From contig NZ_FSRT01000001.1 of NCBI RefSeq assembly GCF_900143015.1, forward strand, positions 620,001 to 684,000: a stretch of 64,000 bases of DNA, in the 5' to 3' direction. A model generated the notes under the pieces. It had not been told where the DNA came from. It made no database searches and saw nothing but the letters and a program-made list of their open reading frames with translations. Every line of letters begins with the position of its first letter. Within the stretch, counting starts at the first letter, position 1. Below are positions 584 to 12,667 of this stretch, piece by piece. This DNA is from Fibrobacter sp. UWB11. GTDB taxonomy: Bacteria; Fibrobacterota; Fibrobacteria; Fibrobacterales; Fibrobacteraceae. Both the position numbers and the translations under genes were made by a program.

Positions 584-1378
584 ATGGCTAAAAGAAATCA
601 AGAAGCGAAAAAGCAGAAAACTATAAAATATGGAACAGAAAAAGCTAAAGAATATCTTGATACGATTGATTGTCTTCGAAAGAATAGGCCTCGAATTGAA
701 GAAAAAGAAAGACAATCAGACATTCTGTTTATAACAGGATGCACGAGCGATAAAGATGGTCGCGATGGTGAATTGCCTGCTTTTGAACGATATGTTGGAG
801 GTGCTTCTGTTGGAATACTCAAATTTTTTTCCAAATTCGTTGAAGAAAAAAAACGCCCTTTTGACCTATACGTTCTATCTGCGGGCTATGGGTTTATTCC
901 TGCCGAAGCTGATATTCAAAAATATGACATTTCGTTTAACAATGTTGATGCTAAATTGCGTAGCGAAATGGCTCAAAGCCGGCATTTGAACTTGAGTGCA
1001 GATTTTCGATCACTCCTTGAAAAAAAATACAAATTGATTATTTTGCGTTTGGGGCCTAAATACATTGATGCTCTTAATAAAGCCGTAAAAAATGATAATG
1101 TGAAATTTTACGAACTCCCTAACGAAACACATGTTTTTTACTTAAAACCCAAATCTACGGACCAGATTTTGTTTCAGGCGAAATCAACACAAACTCATTC
1201 CATTAAGCCATTAGAAATTTACGGCTCAGAAGTAAAAAAAATATCGGGTAGCAAACTCCTCAATGATGCTCAGGATTCATTATGGTGCAAATTCTTTGAT
1301 AAAAACCAATGCATGTCTACGGATGAAATTATCCAAAAAATCAACGATGCAAAAAACGTGGAGGATCTATTGAAATGA
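584..1378 (+). CDS. YaaA/DUF6884-like protein, candidate defence component
   Basis: A 264-residue soluble protein with a basic N-terminus. After an Ile-rich strand (ILFITGCTSDKDG, about residues 47-60) comes the segment YVLSAGYGFIPAEADIQKYD (about 98-117), which resembles the 'SA-YG--------YD' core of YaaA/DUF6884-type proteins. That family link is from memory and is tentative. The start ATG is preceded by GAGAGG. The stop codon overlaps the next start as ATGA (1375-1378), so it is translationally coupled to the GIY-YIG protein, and the two probably work together. I infer a nucleic-acid-related, possibly defence role from the partner and the island; the reaction is unknown. Confidence 0.6.
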   Translation: MAKRNQEAKKQKTIKYGTEKAKEYLDTIDCLRKNRPRIEEKERQSDILFITGCTSDKDGRDGELPAFERYVGGASVGILKFFSKFVEEKKRPFDLYVLSAGYGFIPAEADIQKYDISFNNVDAKLRSEMAQSRHLNLSADFRSLLEKKYKLIILRLGPKYIDALNKAVKNDNVKFYELPNETHVFYLKPKSTDQILFQAKSTQTHSIKPLEIYGSEVKKISGSKLLNDAQDSLWCKFFDKNQCMSTDEIIQKINDAKNVEDLLK

Positions 1379-2115
1379 ATACAGAAAAGAAAGACACCAA
1401 GGAGCTTTGCTTGAAAATTCATGAGTTTTTTAGTAAGCTTCCAAAATACAAAATGGCGGACATAAAAATCGCCCAGCAAAATAACAGGGGTATTATTGGT
1501 GGAGTTTACGTTATGTTCGAGGAGGGGGAAGACTATCATGGCTATTCACGGATTACCCGCATTGGGACCCATCAAGCGGATAAAAAAACTGCTCCGGACA
1601 TTCCTGATAAAAGCCAATCTGTATGGAAAAGAATGATGCAGCATTATGGCAATATGAAAAGTTTATTAGGAAGAAAGGATGGAAGCATCTTTAGAAAAAA
1701 CATAGGCATTGCTATGTTGCAAAAAAGTAGGGATTCATACATTGAAGCGTGGCTGTTTGATCGCACTTCTCGTGCCAATAGAGAAAAATATGATTCCGAC
1801 AAATCTAAAGTTCCTTACAATAAAGAAAAACAAGATAAAATTGAGGCGAAAGTAAGCGATTATATACGCAATAAAATCAGTTTTGTTGTTATTCCCATCA
1901 ATAATCGAAAAAAGAGACATGATTTTGAATATGGGTTGATTTCGGCGATTTGCCAAGCTTCTGATTTTTATCCTAGCAAAAATTGGCTTGGAAACTTTAA
2001 TGATAAGGAAAAGATAAAACAAAGTCATATGTGGGTCTCTGATGGAATAGATGATGAGCCTGTTACAGATGATGAATTTGAAGAAATTAAGCAATGCTGT
2101 AAATCCTTTAGGTAA
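1375..2115 (+). CDS. GIY-YIG-type nuclease domain protein
   Basis: 246 residues. The GIY-like strand is GGVYVMFEEG (residues 42-51). The YIG-like strand is RITRIGTH (59-66). The conserved Arg/His segment is VWKRMMQHYG (83-92), followed by GSIFRKNIGIAML, and a Glu in HDFEYGLISAI (about 182-192) could be the metal ligand. This arrangement fits a divergent GIY-YIG endonuclease rather than the UvrC or homing-enzyme types. The gene overlaps the upstream gene by ATGA, so the two should be made in a fixed ratio. DNA cleavage is inferred from the family; the target is unknown. The pair sits beside an AddAB-like machine, which suits a defence island. Confidence 0.6.
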   Translation: MNTEKKDTKELCLKIHEFFSKLPKYKMADIKIAQQNNRGIIGGVYVMFEEGEDYHGYSRITRIGTHQADKKTAPDIPDKSQSVWKRMMQHYGNMKSLLGRKDGSIFRKNIGIAMLQKSRDSYIEAWLFDRTSRANREKYDSDKSKVPYNKEKQDKIEAKVSDYIRNKISFVVIPINNRKKRHDFEYGLISAICQASDFYPSKNWLGNFNDKEKIKQSHMWVSDGIDDEPVTDDEFEEIKQCCKSFR

Positions 2116-4240: not shown

Positions 4241-5251
4241 ATGGCAGATATGACTCGCGGCGAAAGGACGGTGCAACTCTTTGCGAAGGTGATTTCAAAC
4301 CCTGACAAGAAATTTACCGTTAGCGATTTGATGACTTCGTTTGAAATTCCCGAGGGCGAACGTCGCAATGTTCAGCGTGACATGAGGTTCCTTTCGGAAA
4401 TGGATGGCGGTCGCTATATTGCTGTTGAAACGGTGGGGCGCACGGCTTATTATACTTCGGCACTCCGCAATGCAGAAAGGCTCCTGTTCCCGAACTTCGA
4501 AAACACGATGCTGCATTTCGTATTTCTGAAACGAATTGCGAACATTTATCCGGCTACTAGCGAAATCATCTCGCAACTTCTGGAACGCATCGAAAAAAGT
4601 TTGCCGCATAGTGAACAGAAGTCGCTCCAGTTGCTTGGTGATGCTCTAAACACCAAAATTCTTTTTATGGGTGCTCCGCCGGATTTTGAAGAGGATTCCA
4701 GTGAAAAAATCCGGATTATTTTGCAGGCCGTTCACGAACATCGCAAAATCGATGTGACCTACAAAACGGAAGATGGTGAAAGACAATCGACCCGAATCCC
4801 GCTAATGATCATCATCTACGAAGATGACCTCTATGTGGGTTGCCAACGACAGGACGGCGATACCTATACGCTCAAGTTCCGCCGAATCAAGAATGTCAAG
4901 CTGTCAAAAGAACCATTTGTCGAAGACCCAAAGGTCCTTGACAAACTCCGCAAACAGGTGATGTCTGGGGTGGTGTTGATGGGGAGCCAGGAGCCGAAAC
5001 TTGAAGATATAGAGATTGAGTTCAAGAGCCGGACAATCCTTTATCTCGACGAAAATCCGTTTAACCGCTCCATGCGAATCGGCAAGCCGAAAAACGGAAA
5101 GGTTACGGTGAAACTGAAAGCCGAAATAAATAATCTCTTGTTCAACTGGATCGTTTCTTTTACGGATGCTGCTTGCGTTAAAAAGCCGGTCTCTTTACGT
5201 AATCGTCTCAGAAACTACGCTAAATTTTTAATGGAAAATTACGGGGAGTAA
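4241..5251 (+). CDS. WYL-domain transcriptional regulator
   Basis: 336 residues. The N-terminal winged helix-turn-helix lies at about 5-70 (RTVQLFAKVISNP, then KFTVSDLM and RNVQRDMRFL). The WYL domain lies at about 160-225 (HRKIDVTYKT, then RIPLMIIIYEDDLYVGCQ and LKFRRIKNV), and a WCX-like C-terminal region follows to about 330. WYL domains sense ligands, often nucleic acids or nucleotides, and WYL repressors of the BrxR/CapW type control phage-defence operons. The gene has AGGAG before its ATG and sits immediately upstream of the AddB-like/AddA-like pair, with which it is probably cotranscribed (54-nt gap, no clear promoter in it). The shared dyad at 2128, 3350 and 4181 is its most likely target. 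Confidence 0.85.
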   Translation: MADMTRGERTVQLFAKVISNPDKKFTVSDLMTSFEIPEGERRNVQRDMRFLSEMDGGRYIAVETVGRTAYYTSALRNAERLLFPNFENTMLHFVFLKRIANIYPATSEIISQLLERIEKSLPHSEQKSLQLLGDALNTKILFMGAPPDFEEDSSEKIRIILQAVHEHRKIDVTYKTEDGERQSTRIPLMIIIYEDDLYVGCQRQDGDTYTLKFRRIKNVKLSKEPFVEDPKVLDKLRKQVMSGVVLMGSQEPKLEDIEIEFKSRTILYLDENPFNRSMRIGKPKNGKVTVKLKAEINNLLFNWIVSFTDAACVKKPVSLRNRLRNYAKFLMENYGE

Positions 5252-5305
5252 TTTTTGCCGTTTTTGTAAAAAACACAGTATTTTATAACAAAAGGGGATT
5301 TCAAT

Positions 5306-7993
5306 ATGAATGTGTATTATAATCCAGCGTACAGTGGTTTTGTCTATACGGGATTGACGGATGGTCAGGTCTTTTTTAATTCAACAGTATGCAATACGAA
5401 TTCGCTTGTTGACTTGATTGCCCTTCATGCGGGTGTGGATTTCCCGGTGGCATCAAATATTGACCGTATCCTTGATTACTACAAGGCGATGTTGGAATAC
5501 AATAAAGTTAATCCAGGTAATCTTTTTGAAAAATCTTTTAAGGTTGATAGTTTTAATACGGCAAAGGAATGCTTAAAGTGGCGTGACGCGATGATACTTG
5601 CTGGGTGGCAACCTGGTAAAAATGATGTATCGGAGCGTATGAAGGTCTTTGCAGGGATCGAGAAGAACTTCCATTCCATTTCCAATGGCGAAAAATTGCT
5701 GCGTATAATAGAAACGGTTGAGAAAGGCTGCAATTTGCCTGAGAATTTGGAAATTATTACGCCGTTTGATTACGCTTGCTTTAAACCGGCTGAAGTTTAT
5801 CTTTTGGAGGCGTTGAAAAAGAGAATTGGTGATGATAAAGTTCATTCCAACAATAATCTCCCGCAGAATTCCAACAATCTCCGCAAAGTCGCCAATATCT
5901 TAGTTGAAAACAAGCCTGATGCAATATCGCTTGACGGCGACAAATCCTTGGAACTTCTTTGTTTTGCTGAAAAGAAAGAGGCTCTTCAATATCTAAGTCA
6001 GCTTAATGCGGATGATTATTCTGTTTGGATAAACAGGGATAACCGCGCTTTTGACAACTATTTGATTCAAGTTCAGAAGCCGACATGTGGCTCCAGCGAT
6101 AAAGGTGTCAGCCAAATTTCGGAATTGCCAATCATTGGACTTGCGCTTTTTACTAGACCTCTGAACTTGAACGCCATTATCAACTGGTTGACTGTTCCTA
6201 AGAGCCCTCTTAGCACAAAGTTTAGGAATGAACTTATTAATGCAATCGTTAGTAGCGGTGGATATTTCAATGATGCATGTCGTAAGTGCCTCCGCGAAGC
6301 TGAGGATAAAGATAAAGAACGGATTAAGTATTTCCTTCCAGATATTTCGAAACCAAAAGAAGCGATTAGTGACAATCCAATTAAAAAGTCGGTAATTCTC
6401 GATTATGTAAAACAGCTTTCTCAATGGATTAATGCTAATCTACACATGGAGATGAATGGTTTTGAAAAGAATCACTTGACGGGGGCTCAGTCGATATGTT
6501 CTGCAATGGCGCGAATATTGGAACTGATTGATGCCGATGAAGTTTCTTATGATGATTTGATTTTGAATTTTGATTCCATTTCGACAGAAATAGAATCTGA
6601 ACTTTCTGAAAGTAAGGTTGGTTGCCAGAATCTCATTTCTTCGAGTTCCAATATTGCCTCGCTTGCCGACTCTACGATTTGGTGCGATTTTTACAATTCT
6701 GATGAAATGGCTCTGTCATACGACTTCCTTTTGCCTCAAGAAAAAGAGGCTCTGAAGGAAAATGTGTGGACGAGTGAAAACGAGCAGAAATTTAATCGTT
6801 TGAATAAGTTGTTGCCATTCTTGCTTACCCAAAACAAGCTGACCTTGGTTACTGTGAAAAAGGATGGCACAAAGGATGTTGTTAAAGATCCGATTTTGAT
6901 TCGTCTTGAAAAGAATATGGACAAGGAATTGACAAAAGAATCGTTGTCATTAAAACAGACTTTGGGTATTTCAACGGAAGCGATTGAACAATTCAATAAT
7001 CGTCATCAGAATGAAGATGGAACGATTCGTTTTGAACGAAAAGATTTGGTATCGTTTCCTCAAACAGAAAGTTTTAGTTCCATTTCAACCTTGATTGACA
7101 ATCCGTTTGATTATGTTTTTAACAAAGTTATAAAATTGAGAAAGTTGGGAAGTGCTGCTATGTCAGCTGTGTTCACAACAAAGGGTACGGTTGCTCATGC
7201 TATTATTGCAAAATTATTTGACCCAGAAAAAGGAGGTTCTCCAGCTGCAATAAGGAATCGTATTGATTCTGATTTTGACAAGGTCTTTGATGAGACTGTT
7301 CTTGAATGTGGTGGAATTCTTTTGCAACCAGAAAATCTTTCCGAAAAAAATGTTTTTAAGAAAGATATGAATAGTTGCGTAATAAAGCTGTGCAATTTTA
7401 TTGAAAAAAATGGCCTGAGTGTTGTTGCATGCGAAAAAGAATATAAAGATGTTCTGCTTCCGGAATTTGAATCTCAAGAAATTCTTTTTGACGGCTTCAT
7501 AGACATGCTTTTGGAAGATCAATCTGGTAAAACGGTCATTTTTGACTTTAAGTATTCTCCCAAGAAGGACAAATACGAAAAATGGATAAAGAACAACAAG
7601 TCCATGCAACTTGCCCTCTATAAAGGCTTGGTGGAAAGGACTTCTGATAAAAATGTCAAGGCCAAAGCGTACGTACTTTTACCCGATATTAAAGTCATTA
7701 CTGCTGCTGATTTGATTGGAGCCTCTTTTAAAACGAATGTTGAACGAGAGGGAGATTTGCTTGAAGAAATGAGCAATTCCTATGAATACCGCAAAGTGCA
7801 AATCAAAAACGGCATTGTTGAAGATGGTGAAGGTCTGATTTTCCCTCAGGATGATGTTAAAATATCTTATGCGCTTGATATGGGGAAAAAAACTCTTGTC
7901 CCTTTGGATGCTGAAGAAAAACTCAAAAATAAAACTTGGGAAAAAACTCCTAACACTTACAGCGATTACGCATTTTTTAAGGCAGGTAAATAA
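5306..7993 (+). CDS. AddB-like PD-(D/E)XK nuclease subunit
   Basis: 895 residues, shorter than typical AddB (about 1,100-1,200). The C-terminal RecB-type nuclease is clear: GTVAHAIIAKLF (His in motif I), the metal-binding Asp in FDGFIDML (D729), then IFDFKYSP (D747 and K749) and a Q-x3-Y segment (MQLALYKGLV). SFSSISTLIDNPFDYVF matches the segment before the nuclease domain of AddB, but the iron-sulphur cysteines of classical AddB are not visible. The N-terminal two thirds would be the inactivated helicase-like part, and I see no Walker A there. Its stop TAA shares one base with the next start (7993). It probably forms a heterodimer with the AddA-like protein. GGGG precedes the start. Confidence 0.75.
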   Translation: MNVYYNPAYSGFVYTGLTDGQVFFNSTVCNTNSLVDLIALHAGVDFPVASNIDRILDYYKAMLEYNKVNPGNLFEKSFKVDSFNTAKECLKWRDAMILAGWQPGKNDVSERMKVFAGIEKNFHSISNGEKLLRIIETVEKGCNLPENLEIITPFDYACFKPAEVYLLEALKKRIGDDKVHSNNNLPQNSNNLRKVANILVENKPDAISLDGDKSLELLCFAEKKEALQYLSQLNADDYSVWINRDNRAFDNYLIQVQKPTCGSSDKGVSQISELPIIGLALFTRPLNLNAIINWLTVPKSPLSTKFRNELINAIVSSGGYFNDACRKCLREAEDKDKERIKYFLPDISKPKEAISDNPIKKSVILDYVKQLSQWINANLHMEMNGFEKNHLTGAQSICSAMARILELIDADEVSYDDLILNFDSISTEIESELSESKVGCQNLISSSSNIASLADSTIWCDFYNSDEMALSYDFLLPQEKEALKENVWTSENEQKFNRLNKLLPFLLTQNKLTLVTVKKDGTKDVVKDPILIRLEKNMDKELTKESLSLKQTLGISTEAIEQFNNRHQNEDGTIRFERKDLVSFPQTESFSSISTLIDNPFDYVFNKVIKLRKLGSAAMSAVFTTKGTVAHAIIAKLFDPEKGGSPAAIRNRIDSDFDKVFDETVLECGGILLQPENLSEKNVFKKDMNSCVIKLCNFIEKNGLSVVACEKEYKDVLLPEFESQEILFDGFIDMLLEDQSGKTVIFDFKYSPKKDKYEKWIKNNKSMQLALYKGLVERTSDKNVKAKAYVLLPDIKVITAADLIGASFKTNVEREGDLLEEMSNSYEYRKVQIKNGIVEDGEGLIFPQDDVKISYALDMGKKTLVPLDAEEKLKNKTWEKTPNTYSDYAFFKAGK

Positions 7994-10900
7994 TGAATCA
8001 CGTTACGTATATTAGTGCAGGTGCTGGTAGTGGAAAAACATACACTTTGACATCCATTCTTGCTGATTTAATTGTTAAGGAAAAGTCTACTCCTGATCAG
8101 TTTATCCTGACAACTTTTACCGAAGCCGCTGCAAGTGAATTTAGGGAAAAAGCTAAAGCTAAAATTTATGAGCATACTGAGTATGGCAAATATGCCGAAG
8201 CTGCGGAAAAACTTGATCAATCTATGATTGGAACAGTTGATAGTATCGCCAATAAGTTTGTGCAAAAATATTGGTATTTGCTTGGAGTTAGTCCTGATCA
8301 GAAACTGATTGATGATGACCAGAAAAAAATCTTCATAAGCCAAGTCTTACAATCGGTCACTTCTATTAAGGATGAATCCGGTAATTCGCCTGAAGAAGAT
8401 TTCTTTGTTGAATTCTGCAAAGAATTTAATATTGGTTATCCTTTTGGTAGTGACAAATTTGGGCTGAATTATGATTTCTGGAAAGATGATGTCCGTGAAA
8501 TTTTTGAAAAAGTTCAAAGCTTCAATATTTCTGATTTAAAAGAGAGCCGAGGAAAATCCATCGCTTACGCCACCGAAATTACTGGTGAAAAAGATTTGGT
8601 TGGTGTTGAAGAAGAAGTTTCAGAGCTTCTAAAAGAAATTGAAGATGTTGATAGAACTGTTACGAGGCCATCGAAAGATAGAACTGAAAAAATAAAGAAA
8701 TTCAAACATTTGCTTTCAAATGAACTAAAGCTTTGCGATTTAGCATGTTTTAAAACATTTATAGATAAATTACCGAAAGCTTTTAATAACTGTAATAAAA
8801 AGGATGAGGTTTCGGATTCCCTCGCTTATGTTTATTTATCAAAAAAAGTCCGTGATTTGGTTCTTAAGTACATTGATTTGATTTTTGACTATGTAGAAAA
8901 AGCTCAGGAAGAATTCAAAAAGTTTAAGGAAAAACGCCATCTTATCGACTTTGTTGATATGGAAACGCGATTCCTAGAGCTTTTAGAAAAGGAAGAAGTT
9001 CGGCAGGATATCCGTAACACCTACAAGTATGTATTCGTTGACGAGTTCCAGGATAGTAGCCCTCTTCAGGTCAAAATTTTTGACAAGCTTTCTGAAATAG
9101 TTGGGCGTGATGAATGTGACGATTTCGTTGTTACCATTGGATCTGACAAAGATGCCAATGAATTCCATATTCACAATAGCATTTGGGTTGGTGATTTTAA
9201 ACAGGCTATTTATGGATTCCGCGGAGCCGATACCGACTTGACAAAAGCTGTTGCTGACATTATCGCACAAAAGCAATCGTCATCGCCAAAGCAATTTAAA
9301 ATTCATACGTTAAAAAAGAGTTTCCGCTCTTTAGAAAATATCGTGAATTTCACGAATGAACTTTTTGTTCCCGCTTTTGAAGGAACTTTAAAGAAAGAAG
9401 AAGTTGAGCTTATAGCTCATCGTCCACAAGACAATGCGGTAAAAAGTCTCAAATGTTGGGAGATTGAAGGCAAAAATGCCGAAGATCAATCAAAAAATTT
9501 GGCTTTGCAAATTGCGAAACGTCTTAAAAATGGCGAAAAGCCCTCTGATTATGCAGTTTTGGCTCGAAGAGGGGCTCCGTTGGATAAGCTTTCCGATGCT
9601 TTGAAAGCGCTTAATATCCCTGTATGCAGAACTATTGAAATTGATGAAAATCGAGATGAACTTGCTTTGGTTTCTGCACTGATGAATCTTGTTGCGAATG
9701 ATTTTGATAATTATTCTAGAGCTGTTGTTGCTTTTTTGACTCAAAAGGGATTTGATGCAGGATGTATAATTGATGCAAAACTTGAGTTTGATAAGTCCTA
9801 TCAGGATAATAAGAACTGTCCTAAGTATTTGTCTGATAATCTGATTCTTGCAAAGTTTACGGAGCGTCGTGATTTCTACAAAACACTGACAATTCATAAT
9901 TTGGTGGAAAGCTTAATTGTTGATCTCGACTTGTATTCTGTTGGTCGTAGTTGGGAAAATGCTGTTGGTACTGACGAATGCTTTGCGGCTTTGATCGAAG
10001 CTTCGTACGATTACGAGGAACGCTGTTCCCAAATAGGCGTTTCGCCGACTATTAGTGGCTATATCGATTACTGCAAAAACAATGCAAAATCGGCTGGCTC
10101 CAAGGACGGTGTGGTTCTATCGACATTCCATCATTCAAAAGGGCTTGAATGGAAAAAGGTGATTCTCCTTGAACTTGATGAAGACGTTGAAGACGAAAAT
10201 AAAAGAATCAAGTATGATGTTTTGGGCGTCCAGAATTACCATGACGTTGCTCCATCTGAAAGTAGTCTTTATCCTCCGATGATTATCAATTTGATGCCGA
10301 ATTTGTTTACGGGTAATACGAAAGTTGCTGTAGACATGGCTGAAAAGATTAAGACGTCGAAGTTTTTCGAATCGTCTCGCCAGAGATTCTTCTCCGAAAC
10401 GATTCGCTTGCTTTATGTTGCAATCACTCGTGCTAAGGACGAATTGATTTTGACTTTAGACGAGAAAAATCCTTTGCAAGTATTCTCCTGCTTGAATTGC
10501 AAAGTTCTTGACGCTGCTAATTGCGAAAGTGGTAAAGATGTCAGCTTATTCGGCTTTAAAGACCAAGCGTTTGACGAAAAATTAAAATTCTTGTTTGAAA
10601 ACGATAAATTGTCCGAGGGTGATTCTTATCAGGTCGAAAAACCTGAAAAATTAGTTTTCAAGAAAAACGAAAAAATCGAAACAGCCAATCGCGACCAACA
10701 GCCGAGTAAGGTAAAACCATGTCGAAAGGTAACCGCGAACATCGTGTTTGATTCTAGTAGTCGTATTAAAGCGAATCCGGATGAAATGGACAAGTTTGGT
10801 ACGTGTATCCATAATATTTTCTGCGTGTTGGAAAAATCTCCGACCGTGGAAACGGTTGAACGAATTATCAAGAATCATCAGATGGAAACTGCGCTTCCGC

Positions 10901-11265
10901 AACCCGGTGATGTCCTAAACGCATGGCGAAATCTTGAAAAGTTCTTGGCTGATACATATGGTGCTAAGGTCGCAACTTATCATGAACTTCCGTTTAAGCA
11001 TATGCACGATGGCCAGATTTTCAATGGAGAGATGGACCTTGTGTGGGAAACGGATAAAGGCGTAGTTCTTGTGGACTTTAAGTCGTATCCTGGAAACAAA
11101 AATGATGTCGTTACCGAAAATAACAAACACTATGCGGGAATGTATGCAGGGCAGTTTGAATGCTATGAACGTGCGTTAAAGGCTGCTGGCAAGAATGTCC
11201 TTGCAAGGCTGGTTTATTACCATGTCCTTGGCGTGGTTGTGGAATTAAAATTAGATGAAGAATAA
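7993..11265 (+). CDS. AddA-like UvrD-family helicase-nuclease
   Basis: 1,090 residues with superfamily-1 helicase motifs in order: Walker A AGAGSGKT (9-16), TTFTEAAA (motif Ia), Walker B VDEFQDSSP (349-357), WVGDFKQAIYGFRGA (motif III), LKKSFRSLENI (motif IV), STFHHSKGLEWKKV (motif V) and RLLYVAITRAKDEL (motif VI). The C-terminal RecB-type nuclease has FGTCIHNIF, NGEMDLVW, VLVDFKSY (D1028, K1030) and a YAGQFECYERAL tail. The pair should be an ATP-driven, dual-nuclease DNA-end resection machine. It may be the chromosome's own AddAB or a defence-type version; the WYL regulator and neighbours favour the latter, but the window cannot decide. It overlaps the AddB-like gene by one base. Confidence 0.85.
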   Translation: MNHVTYISAGAGSGKTYTLTSILADLIVKEKSTPDQFILTTFTEAAASEFREKAKAKIYEHTEYGKYAEAAEKLDQSMIGTVDSIANKFVQKYWYLLGVSPDQKLIDDDQKKIFISQVLQSVTSIKDESGNSPEEDFFVEFCKEFNIGYPFGSDKFGLNYDFWKDDVREIFEKVQSFNISDLKESRGKSIAYATEITGEKDLVGVEEEVSELLKEIEDVDRTVTRPSKDRTEKIKKFKHLLSNELKLCDLACFKTFIDKLPKAFNNCNKKDEVSDSLAYVYLSKKVRDLVLKYIDLIFDYVEKAQEEFKKFKEKRHLIDFVDMETRFLELLEKEEVRQDIRNTYKYVFVDEFQDSSPLQVKIFDKLSEIVGRDECDDFVVTIGSDKDANEFHIHNSIWVGDFKQAIYGFRGADTDLTKAVADIIAQKQSSSPKQFKIHTLKKSFRSLENIVNFTNELFVPAFEGTLKKEEVELIAHRPQDNAVKSLKCWEIEGKNAEDQSKNLALQIAKRLKNGEKPSDYAVLARRGAPLDKLSDALKALNIPVCRTIEIDENRDELALVSALMNLVANDFDNYSRAVVAFLTQKGFDAGCIIDAKLEFDKSYQDNKNCPKYLSDNLILAKFTERRDFYKTLTIHNLVESLIVDLDLYSVGRSWENAVGTDECFAALIEASYDYEERCSQIGVSPTISGYIDYCKNNAKSAGSKDGVVLSTFHHSKGLEWKKVILLELDEDVEDENKRIKYDVLGVQNYHDVAPSESSLYPPMIINLMPNLFTGNTKVAVDMAEKIKTSKFFESSRQRFFSETIRLLYVAITRAKDELILTLDEKNPLQVFSCLNCKVLDAANCESGKDVSLFGFKDQAFDEKLKFLFENDKLSEGDSYQVEKPEKLVFKKNEKIETANRDQQPSKVKPCRKVTANIVFDSSSRIKANPDEMDKFGTCIHNIFCVLEKSPTVETVERIIKNHQMETALPQPGDVLNAWRNLEKFLADTYGAKVATYHELPFKHMHDGQIFNGEMDLVWETDKGVVLVDFKSYPGNKNDVVTENNKHYAGMYAGQFECYERALKAAGKNVLARLVYYHVLGVVVELKLDEE

Positions 11266-11422: not shown

Positions 11423-11451
11423 TTGCACGCAAAGTTTTGAAGTGGTATATT
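11423..11451 (+). promoter_or_regulatory. Sigma70-type promoter of the candidate RNA
   Basis: TTGCAC (11423-11428), a 17-nt spacer, then TATATT (11446-11451). This is the canonical spacing and predicts transcription from about 11458. No CDS follows directly; the sequence downstream is strongly structured. Confidence 0.65.
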
Positions 11452-11457
11452 CATGGT

Positions 11458-11676
11458 ATTGATAGCATTTCGTCCTGCTGACAGCGTATTCGATCCGGGC
11501 AGGTTGTTTCACTATCTGCTTGACGCCGACCTCCCTTTGTTTCGCTTGGCAGGCGAAAATATTCGAGGCAGCATACACCCTATGGGGAAACTGGCCCCCT
11601 GGCGATCAACGTAGAGCTCCGTCTGTCATAAGAAAAATATGGTAGACGTAAAGCCTTGTCGTTAAAGGTTTTGTTT
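11458..11676 (+). ncRNA. Candidate structured non-coding RNA
   Basis: About 220 nt between a canonical promoter and a weak terminator. Visible pairings: a closing stem TGACAG-CG with CG-T-CTGTCA (near 11479 and 11622); TTGA-C-GCC with GGC-GA-TCAA (near 11521 and 11602); a long hairpin in which CCTC pairs with GAGG around TTTCGC/GCGAAA; and GGGG/CCCC around AAACTGG. The end is an 8-bp stem AAAGCCTT / AAGGTTTT (11650-11672) followed by GTTT. It does not match what I know of tmRNA, RNase P RNA or SRP RNA. A 6S-like RNA is possible by length and by the long closed rod, but I cannot show it. No ORF with a ribosome-binding site is evident inside. Confidence 0.5.
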
Positions 11677-11719
11677 AACCATTCAAAAAGGACATCTCGC
11701 TCGGCGGGATGAATCAAAT

Positions 11720-12667
11720 ATGGATTGTTCTCAGCACTATAAAATGCTCAAGGATATGGAAAAGGATCCGAAGAATCTTGCCAAGTATCAAAAAATGTAC
11801 AAGTACGCTTATCTTTTAAGTGATGGCGTTTTCAAGATTGTATTCACGGAGGAAAAGTCGCATTCGCTTCTTATTTCGCTGTTGAATGCGATGCTTGACT
11901 TGCATGGTGGTGATGCCATCGGGGAAATTTCGCTGGAAATGCAGGAATTCCCGGGTATTTTCAATAAGAAAAATTGTATTGTCGATATCATTGGCACGAC
12001 CAATGCTGGCGAAAAGGTTCTTGTTGAAATTCAACAGCAAAAGGACAAGTTTTTCAAGGATCGCGTAGAATACTATGTATCTCGTGTTATTGAAAATCAG
12101 GTTCATAAGAGCGAAAAATTTGAATTGCCACATATCTATTTTCTTGGACTTCTGGATTTTGAACTTTTCCCAGAAGAAGAACATGAATACATCCATCATG
12201 TCGATGAAATGTGTCATGGCAAGAAGTTCTTCCCGAAGGTTCAGAAGGTTTTCGTGGAAATCGAAAAGTTTTTCAAACTTGAGAAGTTGGGATTTACCAA
12301 GGATGACGAGTCTGATGCCGCTCAGTGGCTACGTGCTATCAGGGTTGTTATCAAGGAAGAACCTGCTCCTGAAAAAATTATGCAGAATGAAACGTTTAGG
12401 CGGTTGCTTGAATCGGTGAAATTGATTAATTTTGCAGAGGAGCTTTTCAACTGCGAGGTAAAGAAAATGACGGATGTGATGGCTGAACGCGAAAACGCTT
12501 TTGCCGAAGGCAGGGCGGAAGGCTTTGCTGAAGGGGCTTCTACCGAGCGTACAAAAGCGGATAAGGAAAAACGCGAAATGGCGAAAAGTCTCAAGGAACA
12601 GAATGTAGATGTTTCTATAATCGCTAAATCGACAGGTTTTTCTGAAGAAGAAATTCTCAGTTTATAG
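11720..12667 (+). CDS. Rpn-family recombination-promoting nuclease / PD-(D/E)XK transposase-like protein
   Basis: 315 residues of the Rpn/PD-(D/E)XK family often annotated as 'putative transposase'. It starts KYAYLLSDGVFKIVFTEEKS, the usual N-terminal helix and 'D--FK--F' segment. The nuclease core is CIVDIIGTTNAGEKVLVEIQQQ (about 86-107), with Asp and Glu-x-Gln metal ligands, followed by DRVEYYVSRVI. The C-terminus has short AEG repeats (AEGRAEGFAEGASTE) and a charged helix. These proteins cleave DNA and occur in many divergent copies per genome. The ribosome-binding site is weak. A bidirectional terminator follows at 12695. Confidence 0.8.
   Translation: MDCSQHYKMLKDMEKDPKNLAKYQKMYKYAYLLSDGVFKIVFTEEKSHSLLISLLNAMLDLHGGDAIGEISLEMQEFPGIFNKKNCIVDIIGTTNAGEKVLVEIQQQKDKFFKDRVEYYVSRVIENQVHKSEKFELPHIYFLGLLDFELFPEEEHEYIHHVDEMCHGKKFFPKVQKVFVEIEKFFKLEKLGFTKDDESDAAQWLRAIRVVIKEEPAPEKIMQNETFRRLLESVKLINFAEELFNCEVKKMTDVMAERENAFAEGRAEGFAEGASTERTKADKEKREMAKSLKEQNVDVSIIAKSTGFSEEEILSL

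What the first reader, a model, noticed from the sequence alone, without database searches (positions are those of the whole stretch)
11423..11676. Candidate new structured RNA with its own promoter between two copies of one terminator
TTGCAC-N17-TATATT is followed by about 220 nt with nested stems (closing TGACAG/CTGTCA, TTGA-GCC/GGC-TCAA, TTTCGC/GCGAAA within CCTC/GAGG, GGGG/CCCC) and a terminal AAAGCCTT/AAGGTTTT. It does not look like tmRNA, RNase P or SRP RNA. A 6S-type RNA or an unknown class is possible.
Basis: partly seen in the sequence, partly recalled or inferred. Interest (0 to 1): 0.65.

Follow-up and report, generated by a model that had tools for sequence, protein, structure and literature searches.

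The report
Shared RNA leader of bacterial toxin genes
In Fibrobacter and close relatives, one previously uncatalogued structured RNA sits at the front of messages for at least nine unrelated kinds of toxin-like, nuclease and defence genes, which suggests that a single RNA-based control is reused across a whole toxin and defence arsenal.

Summary
The structured RNA is real, but it is not a free-standing RNA. Bases 11446 to about 11719 form the 5' leader of the Rpn-family PD-(D/E)XK nuclease gene 11720-12667. The genome is a Fibrobacter. A covariance model of the core finds 98 copies in 45 of 80 congeneric genomes, and copies in only two other genera of the same family. It matches nothing in Rfam. 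Across 83 copies 97.9% of helix cells pair (85.9% in shuffles), and 14 of 21 pairs show compensatory change. Core length is spread over all three reading frames, so it is not a conserved ORF. A TATATT -10 box lies at fixed distances in 71 of 82 copies. In 82 of 83 copies a gene starts immediately 3' on the same strand, and these genes belong to at least nine unrelated families (Rpn/PDDEXK_2, Transposase_31, YhcG, ORF6N, HigBA, Ntox50 and others). Near-identical leaders precede different families, so specific toxin-antitoxin pairing is unlikely. I read it as a cis-regulatory, riboswitch-like leader acting mainly on translation: the invariant GUAGAG strand can close the core or pair 3' with GGUGUUCURC. 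Signal and switch are inferred. The window copy lost 71 nt, including that 3' strand. The 6S and terminator readings are not supported.

The parts
11423..11451 (+). Promoter of the leader: TTGCAC-N17-TATATT
   Evidence: Sequence; TATATT at fixed distance in 71 of 82 copies against 46 of 384 control windows, 56 with TTG at -35 spacing
11474..11503 (+). 5' hairpin CCUGCU/GGCAGG; variable in relatives, from CCCC/GGGG to versions with an insert of about 85 nt
   Evidence: Fold, alignments
11515..11615 (+). Conserved core: P1 (11515-11527 with 11601-11615), P2 (CCTC 11530-11533 with GAGG 11565-11568, inner TTTCGC 11540-11545 with GCGAAA 11553-11558), P3 (GGGG 11584-11587 with CCCC 11596-11599)
   Evidence: RNAalifold and covariation; covariance model R1, 98 places in 45 of 80 genus genomes
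11611..11616 (+). Proposed switching strand GUAGAG: closes P1, and in intact relatives can pair with a downstream GGUGUUCURC
   Evidence: Lower P1 pairs invariant in 83 copies; alternative stem in 38 copies by energy; consensus stem in A4
11620..11648 (+). Domain-2 hairpin H1 (CGTCTGTCAT/ATGGTAGACG)
   Evidence: Compensatory changes in A4
11650..11672 (+).
   Evidence: Alignment A4; no conserved U-run after it in relatives
11671..11672 (+). Site of a 71-nt deletion relative to L084, L087 and L095; removes the 3' partner of GUAGAG and the 5' part of the RBS region
   Evidence: blastn of loci; sequence comparison
11693..11711 (+). Hairpin CATCTCGC/GCGGGATG just upstream of the start codon
   Evidence: RBS-stem test
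11720..12667 (+). Gene served by the leader: 315-aa Rpn-family PD-(D/E)XK nuclease (PDDEXK_2, PF12784; TIGR01784)
   Evidence: ORF, Pfam E 4e-33, NCBIfam E 2e-24

Best explanation
The element is the 5' untranslated leader of the downstream toxin-like gene and acts in cis. Transcription starts just after TATATT (inferred from the conserved -10 box). A 5' hairpin and a compact three-helix core (P1-P2-P3) fold first. In the long-leader copies, the 3' strand of P1 (GUAGAG) can either close the core or pair with a downstream GGUGUUCURC strand. The outcome changes access to the translation start, either directly (in two Ntox50 copies the downstream strand ends one base before the ATG) or through a separate hairpin that holds the ribosome-binding site. 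The core would be the sensor, stabilised by a ligand, protein or ion, so that toxin, nuclease or defence genes are translated only under some condition. Shown: structure, covariation, promoter conservation, strict 5' position, shared use by unrelated gene families, and the alternative pairing as predicted energetics. Inferred: transcription, translational control, direction of the switch and the signal. In the window copy the switching partner is deleted, so its switch is probably changed or lost.
For: Covariance model: 98 places in 45 of 80 genomes. Covariation over 83 copies: 97.9% of cells paired against 85.9% shuffled, 170 against 43.5 cells with double change, 0 of 500 shuffles as high. 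Gene families: 82 of 83 copies are immediately 5' of a gene on the same strand, from at least nine unrelated families. Promoter conservation. No conserved terminator between core and gene; core to ATG is only 23-31 nt in the small TA-like copies. RBS-overlapping stem beats 90% of shuffles in 35 of 53 copies. Alternative GUAGAG pairing is predicted in 38 long-leader copies and is more stable than P1 by about 10 kcal/mol on average. Family swapping: 31 label changes on the RNA tree, with 12 the least possible among the labelled families. Rpn proteins are reported toxins acting against phage (PMC10327210, abstract).
Against: No transcript data. Single-sequence minimum-energy folds of the whole window leader do not show P1, and the folding z-score is ordinary. 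GUAGAG is invariant, so its alternative pairing cannot be supported by covariation on that side. Small TA-type copies lack domain 2, so the switch proposed for long leaders cannot be the only mechanism. The HigBA copies carry a second promoter-like sequence between core and gene. Eighteen of 53 tested leaders show no clear RBS stem.
Confidence: 0.62

Rival explanations
1. A trans-acting or antitoxin RNA next to its toxin gene (type III toxin-antitoxin or AbiF-like): the RNA binds and neutralises the encoded protein.
For: RNA upstream of a toxin-like gene is the layout of ToxIN and AbiF; RCd22 upstream of abiF acts this way, in cis and in trans (PMC12373285). Here the genes are toxin-like.
Against: One RNA core serves at least nine unrelated protein families, and near-identical cores precede different families (L090/L090b identical; L066/L069). 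No conserved terminator, and no repeated motif as in type III antitoxins.
Confidence: 0.12
2. A DNA recombination site (attC-like folded strand) or other mobility module that captures toxin genes; the conserved fold acts in DNA.
For: Dispersed, unevenly distributed copies with frequent change of the gene behind them; one clear gain of a leader-plus-gene unit in G020 against G067 and G041.
Against: A -10 box at a fixed distance, fixed orientation and start-codon proximity and RBS stems point to RNA. In the one occupied/empty comparison the boundaries lie upstream of the promoter and downstream of the gene, not inside the fold. No terminal inverted repeats or target duplications seen there.
Confidence: 0.1
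3. A self-cleaving ribozyme that processes the leader.
For: About 85-120 nt, several helices, conserved junction letters (CAG, ACCCU, GUAGAG) and association with mobile genes; not excluded by any test here.
Against: No match to any known ribozyme family in Rfam; the RBS stems suggest control instead.
Confidence: 0.07
4. A conserved small protein-coding gene rather than an RNA.
For: The window copy has a 53-codon open frame through the core (ATG 11453 to TAG 11612, read).
Against: Core spacing is spread over all three frames (30/25/22) and 35 of 77 copies have a stop in the equivalent frame; changes follow base pairs.
Confidence: 0.02

Closest known systems
Riboswitches and orphan cis-regulatory leader RNAs
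   Same: Structured, covarying sensor-like core in a 5' leader, followed by a variable expression platform with a possible shared switching strand and RBS hairpins
   Different: No Rfam match; clients are toxin, nuclease and defence genes of many families rather than one metabolic pathway; signal unknown
abiF RNA motif (RF03085) and type III toxin-antitoxin RNAs
   Same: Structured RNA with its own promoter directly upstream of a toxin or abortive-infection gene (PMC12373285)
   Different: Those pair one RNA with one protein family and act by binding it; here one RNA serves at least nine families, with no repeats and no terminator
6S RNA (RF00013)
   Same: Similar length and a promoter of its own
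   Different: No match in this genome; copy number varies; it leads into a gene
Rpn recombination-promoting nucleases (TIGR01784, PDDEXK_2)
   Same: The gene served in the window and the most frequent client family; reported as toxins acting against phage with an intragenic antitoxin (PMC10327210)
   Different: An RNA leader in front of them was not found in the literature searched here; only one of eight PDDEXK_2 genes in this genome has one

Membership tests
6S RNA (RF00013) | Match to the family covariance model | tested here: not met
   No match in own genome while 5 of 14 control genomes match; none in the window
6S RNA (RF00013) | Binds RNA polymerase | not testable with these tools
   Needs biochemistry
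Cis-regulatory leader RNA (riboswitch-like) | Conserved structure with compensatory changes | tested here: met
   14 of 21 pairs with double change, 0 of 500 shuffles as high
Cis-regulatory leader RNA (riboswitch-like) | Located 5' of and on the same strand as the gene, downstream of a promoter | tested here: met
   82 of 83 copies; TATATT in 71 of 82
Cis-regulatory leader RNA (riboswitch-like) | Expression platform with mutually exclusive structures | tested here: inconclusive
   Alternative GUAGAG pairing in 38 copies by energy; invariant strand gives no covariation; absent in short-leader copies
Riboswitch | Binds a small-molecule ligand | not testable with these tools
   Needs binding assays
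Any Rfam 15 family | Match at gathering score | tested here: not met
   None in the window or in seven other loci with copies
Type III toxin-antitoxin / abiF RNA | RNA specific to one toxin family | tested here: not met
   At least nine client families; 31 label changes on the RNA tree
Type III toxin-antitoxin / abiF RNA | Repeated RNA motifs followed by a terminator before the toxin gene | tested here: not met
   Single core; no conserved U-run between core and gene in the copies read
Type III toxin-antitoxin / abiF RNA | RNA neutralises the toxin by binding it | not testable with these tools
   Needs co-expression and pull-down
Integron attC site | Recombination boundary within the folded site | tested here: inconclusive
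   One empty/occupied comparison, boundaries outside the fold
Protein-coding gene | Conserved reading frame | tested here: not met
   Frame spread 30/25/22, stops in 35 of 77

The most novel reading that the evidence does not exclude
A single sensor RNA, restricted to Fibrobacteraceae, that detects one signal (for example a nucleotide or a consequence of phage infection) and switches on a whole interchangeable set of toxin and anti-phage genes: a riboswitch-type regulon for defence, with genes exchanged behind a common leader.
Probability: 0.25. Interest if true: 0.9.

Novelty: new variant of a known kind. Interest (0 to 1): 0.68.

Why it matters
Known structured leaders usually go with one pathway, and known RNAs beside toxin genes usually go with one protein family. 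Here one RNA core is shared by at least nine unrelated toxin-like, nuclease and candidate defence families and is swapped between them. If it is a sensor, it offers an RNA-level common control of toxins and defence genes, and a handle on what Rpn, YhcG and ORF6N proteins respond to. It also gives a new RNA class with a ready covariance model, in a phylum where few regulatory RNAs are described.

Tried and rejected
6S RNA: RF00013 not found. Rfam at relaxed threshold in the window and seven loci: nothing credible, only a sub-threshold IRES_Bip hit outside the element. Conserved ORF: rejected on frame spread. Spread beyond Fibrobacteraceae: the DNA pattern hit 77 stretches of genome contigs and 14 viral contigs, but the covariance model confirmed none of the non-Fibrobacter or viral ones that were tested. 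Plasmid and phage collections: no match. Closing stem TGACAG/CTGTCA: not conserved. Second terminator: not a copy of the first, and no terminator or promoter passed the generic scan. A lower-threshold search for hidden leaders in front of the other PDDEXK_2 genes of this genome found none. Literature: nothing on this RNA in the searches made.

Full report
What was checked. The finding claims a promoter followed by about 220 nt of nested stems between two terminators. The promoter elements are where stated: TTGCAC 11423-11428, 17-nt spacer, TATATT 11446-11451. The energy of the single sequence is not unusual (z -0.78) and no Rfam family matches, at the gathering score or at E up to 10. The evidence therefore had to come from relatives.

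Relatives. A DNA search of 41 genomes found 21 matches in 12 genomes, two of them in the window's own genome. Fifteen copies were aligned; RNAalifold gave 21 pairs, 10 of them with changes on both sides. The covariance model R1 built from this found 98 places in 45 of 80 genomes of the genus, and in the whole phylum only three genera, all of the window's family. Named contigs carrying copies are Fibrobacter, including F. succinogenes assemblies. The non-Fibrobacter and viral contigs that matched a loose DNA pattern and were tested were not confirmed by the model, and there is no match in phage or plasmid records.

Structure. On 83 copies 97.9% of cells form a standard pair against 85.9% in shuffles; 14 of 21 pairs have compensatory changes; 170 cells changed on both sides against 43.5; no shuffle of 500 was as high, and sliding the partners destroys the signal. 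A3 is fitted to the model, so the independent MAFFT alignment A2 matters as a check; it agrees. Helices: P1 UCUGCUUGACGCC with GGCGAUCAACGUAGA; P2 with an inner hairpin; P3 GGGG/CCCC. The lower four pairs CUGC/GUAG of P1, including a G-U wobble, are invariant in all 83 copies. A variable 5' hairpin precedes the core, from a short CCCC/GGGG form to a form with an insert of about 85 nt.

Not a reading frame. The spacing between the conserved ends of the core is spread over the three frames (30, 25, 22) and 35 of 77 copies have a stop in the frame that is open in the window.

Where the copies lie. For 82 of the 83 copies a gene of a toxin-like, nuclease or defence-type family begins immediately downstream on the same strand. 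Families with a profile match: PDDEXK_2 (several subfamilies), Transposase_31, YhcG/DUF1016, ORF6N, Gp49-like HigB with a HTH partner, Ntox50, calcineurin-like phosphoesterase, SLFN_AlbA. YhcG and ORF6N proteins match PADLOC candidate systems PDC-S02 and PDC-S05. Two further groups, a SITHNFV-type small protein followed by a GNAT-like protein and a PIN-like protein, are named by eye only; profile libraries gave no match over cut-off. One copy (L052) has no such gene. In this genome only one of eight PDDEXK_2 genes has the leader, so the leader is not simply part of that gene family.

Promoter and leader nature. TATATT lies within 260 nt upstream in 71 of 82 copies against 46 of 384 control windows, at three distances that follow the length of the 5' hairpin, and 56 have TTG at -35 spacing. 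No conserved U-run follows the core. In the GNAT-type copies the ATG is only 23-25 nt from the core.

Leaders change genes. On the RNA tree the client family changes 31 times (least possible 12 for the families counted), though labels are still clustered. L090 and L090b, 1.45 kb apart, have identical cores and different genes. Comparison of G020 with G067 and G041 shows that a whole unit, promoter plus leader plus gene, was gained behind an older one; the boundaries lie outside the fold. The tree rests on 119 columns, so its deep forks are weak.

How it may work. Long leaders have a second domain closed by GUAGAGCACC with GGUGUUCURC, with two inner hairpins that covary. The strand GUAGAG is therefore shared with P1. 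Forced folding of 38 long leaders makes the second pairing more stable than P1 by about 10 kcal/mol on average, as expected if something must stabilise the core to win; tertiary contacts are not modelled. In the Ntox50 leaders L065 and L068 the downstream strand ends one base before the ATG. In 35 of 53 tested leaders a stem near the ribosome-binding site is stronger than in at least 90% of shuffles, with two alternative versions, CUCCUGUUU/AAACAGGAG and UUCCGUUUG/CAAACGGAA. This is why I prefer translational control in cis. The signal, and whether the default is off, are not known.

The window copy. Relative to L084, L087 and L095 it lacks 71 nt after position 11671, as do L088 and L097. The lost part includes the downstream partner strand. 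The copy keeps the core and a short hairpin at the RBS (11693-11711), so its switch is probably altered. Single-sequence folding of the whole window leader does not show P1, which is a reminder that the model rests on comparison.

Comparison with known systems. AbiF and type III toxin-antitoxin RNAs resemble it in layout (PMC12373285) but pair one RNA with one protein family. Rpn proteins are reported as anti-phage toxins with intragenic antitoxins (PMC10327210, abstract seen). No paper on this RNA was found in the searches made; most subscription papers are not in that library, so an earlier description cannot be excluded.

Verdict. A real, uncatalogued structured RNA; a cis-acting leader shared by toxin-like and defence genes in Fibrobacteraceae; mechanism probable but unproved.

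Noticed in passing
window 584-2112: Two adjacent ORFs: a DUF6884-like protein (just under cut-off, matches PDC-M57A) and a strong PADLOC PDC-M57B match, a candidate two-gene defence system.
   Followed up: partly
window 4241-11265: WYL-domain regulator, a PDDEXK_1 nuclease and a UvrD/GajB-like helicase with a C-terminal PDDEXK_1 part, directly upstream of the leader; homology of related loci starts only about 200 bp upstream of the leader core, so this block is specific to this genome or newly inserted.
   Followed up: partly
L068, L090, L073, L055 and others, about 20-120 nt upstream of the core: The loop of the 5' hairpin holds a nearly identical insert of about 85 nt (GACGCC..GGCGTC, GTTTCAAGCAAGCTTGAAAC) in many copies in front of different genes: a swappable module of its own.
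   Followed up: no
L100, L112, L115, L120, L128, 0-31 nt after the core: HigBA copies have a promoter-like sequence (TTGACR-N17-TATATT) with a palindrome between core and ATG, probably the operon's own operator; that mRNA may be leaderless.
   Followed up: no
L126 and L121 (second copy): ORF6N copies in which the leader core is joined directly into the coding sequence, without the usual start region.
   Followed up: no
L090 (G020) against L075 (G067) and L073 (G041): Occupied and empty site of a leader-plus-PDDEXK_2 unit inserted behind a leader-plus-Transposase_31 unit; no inverted repeats or target duplication seen.
   Followed up: partly
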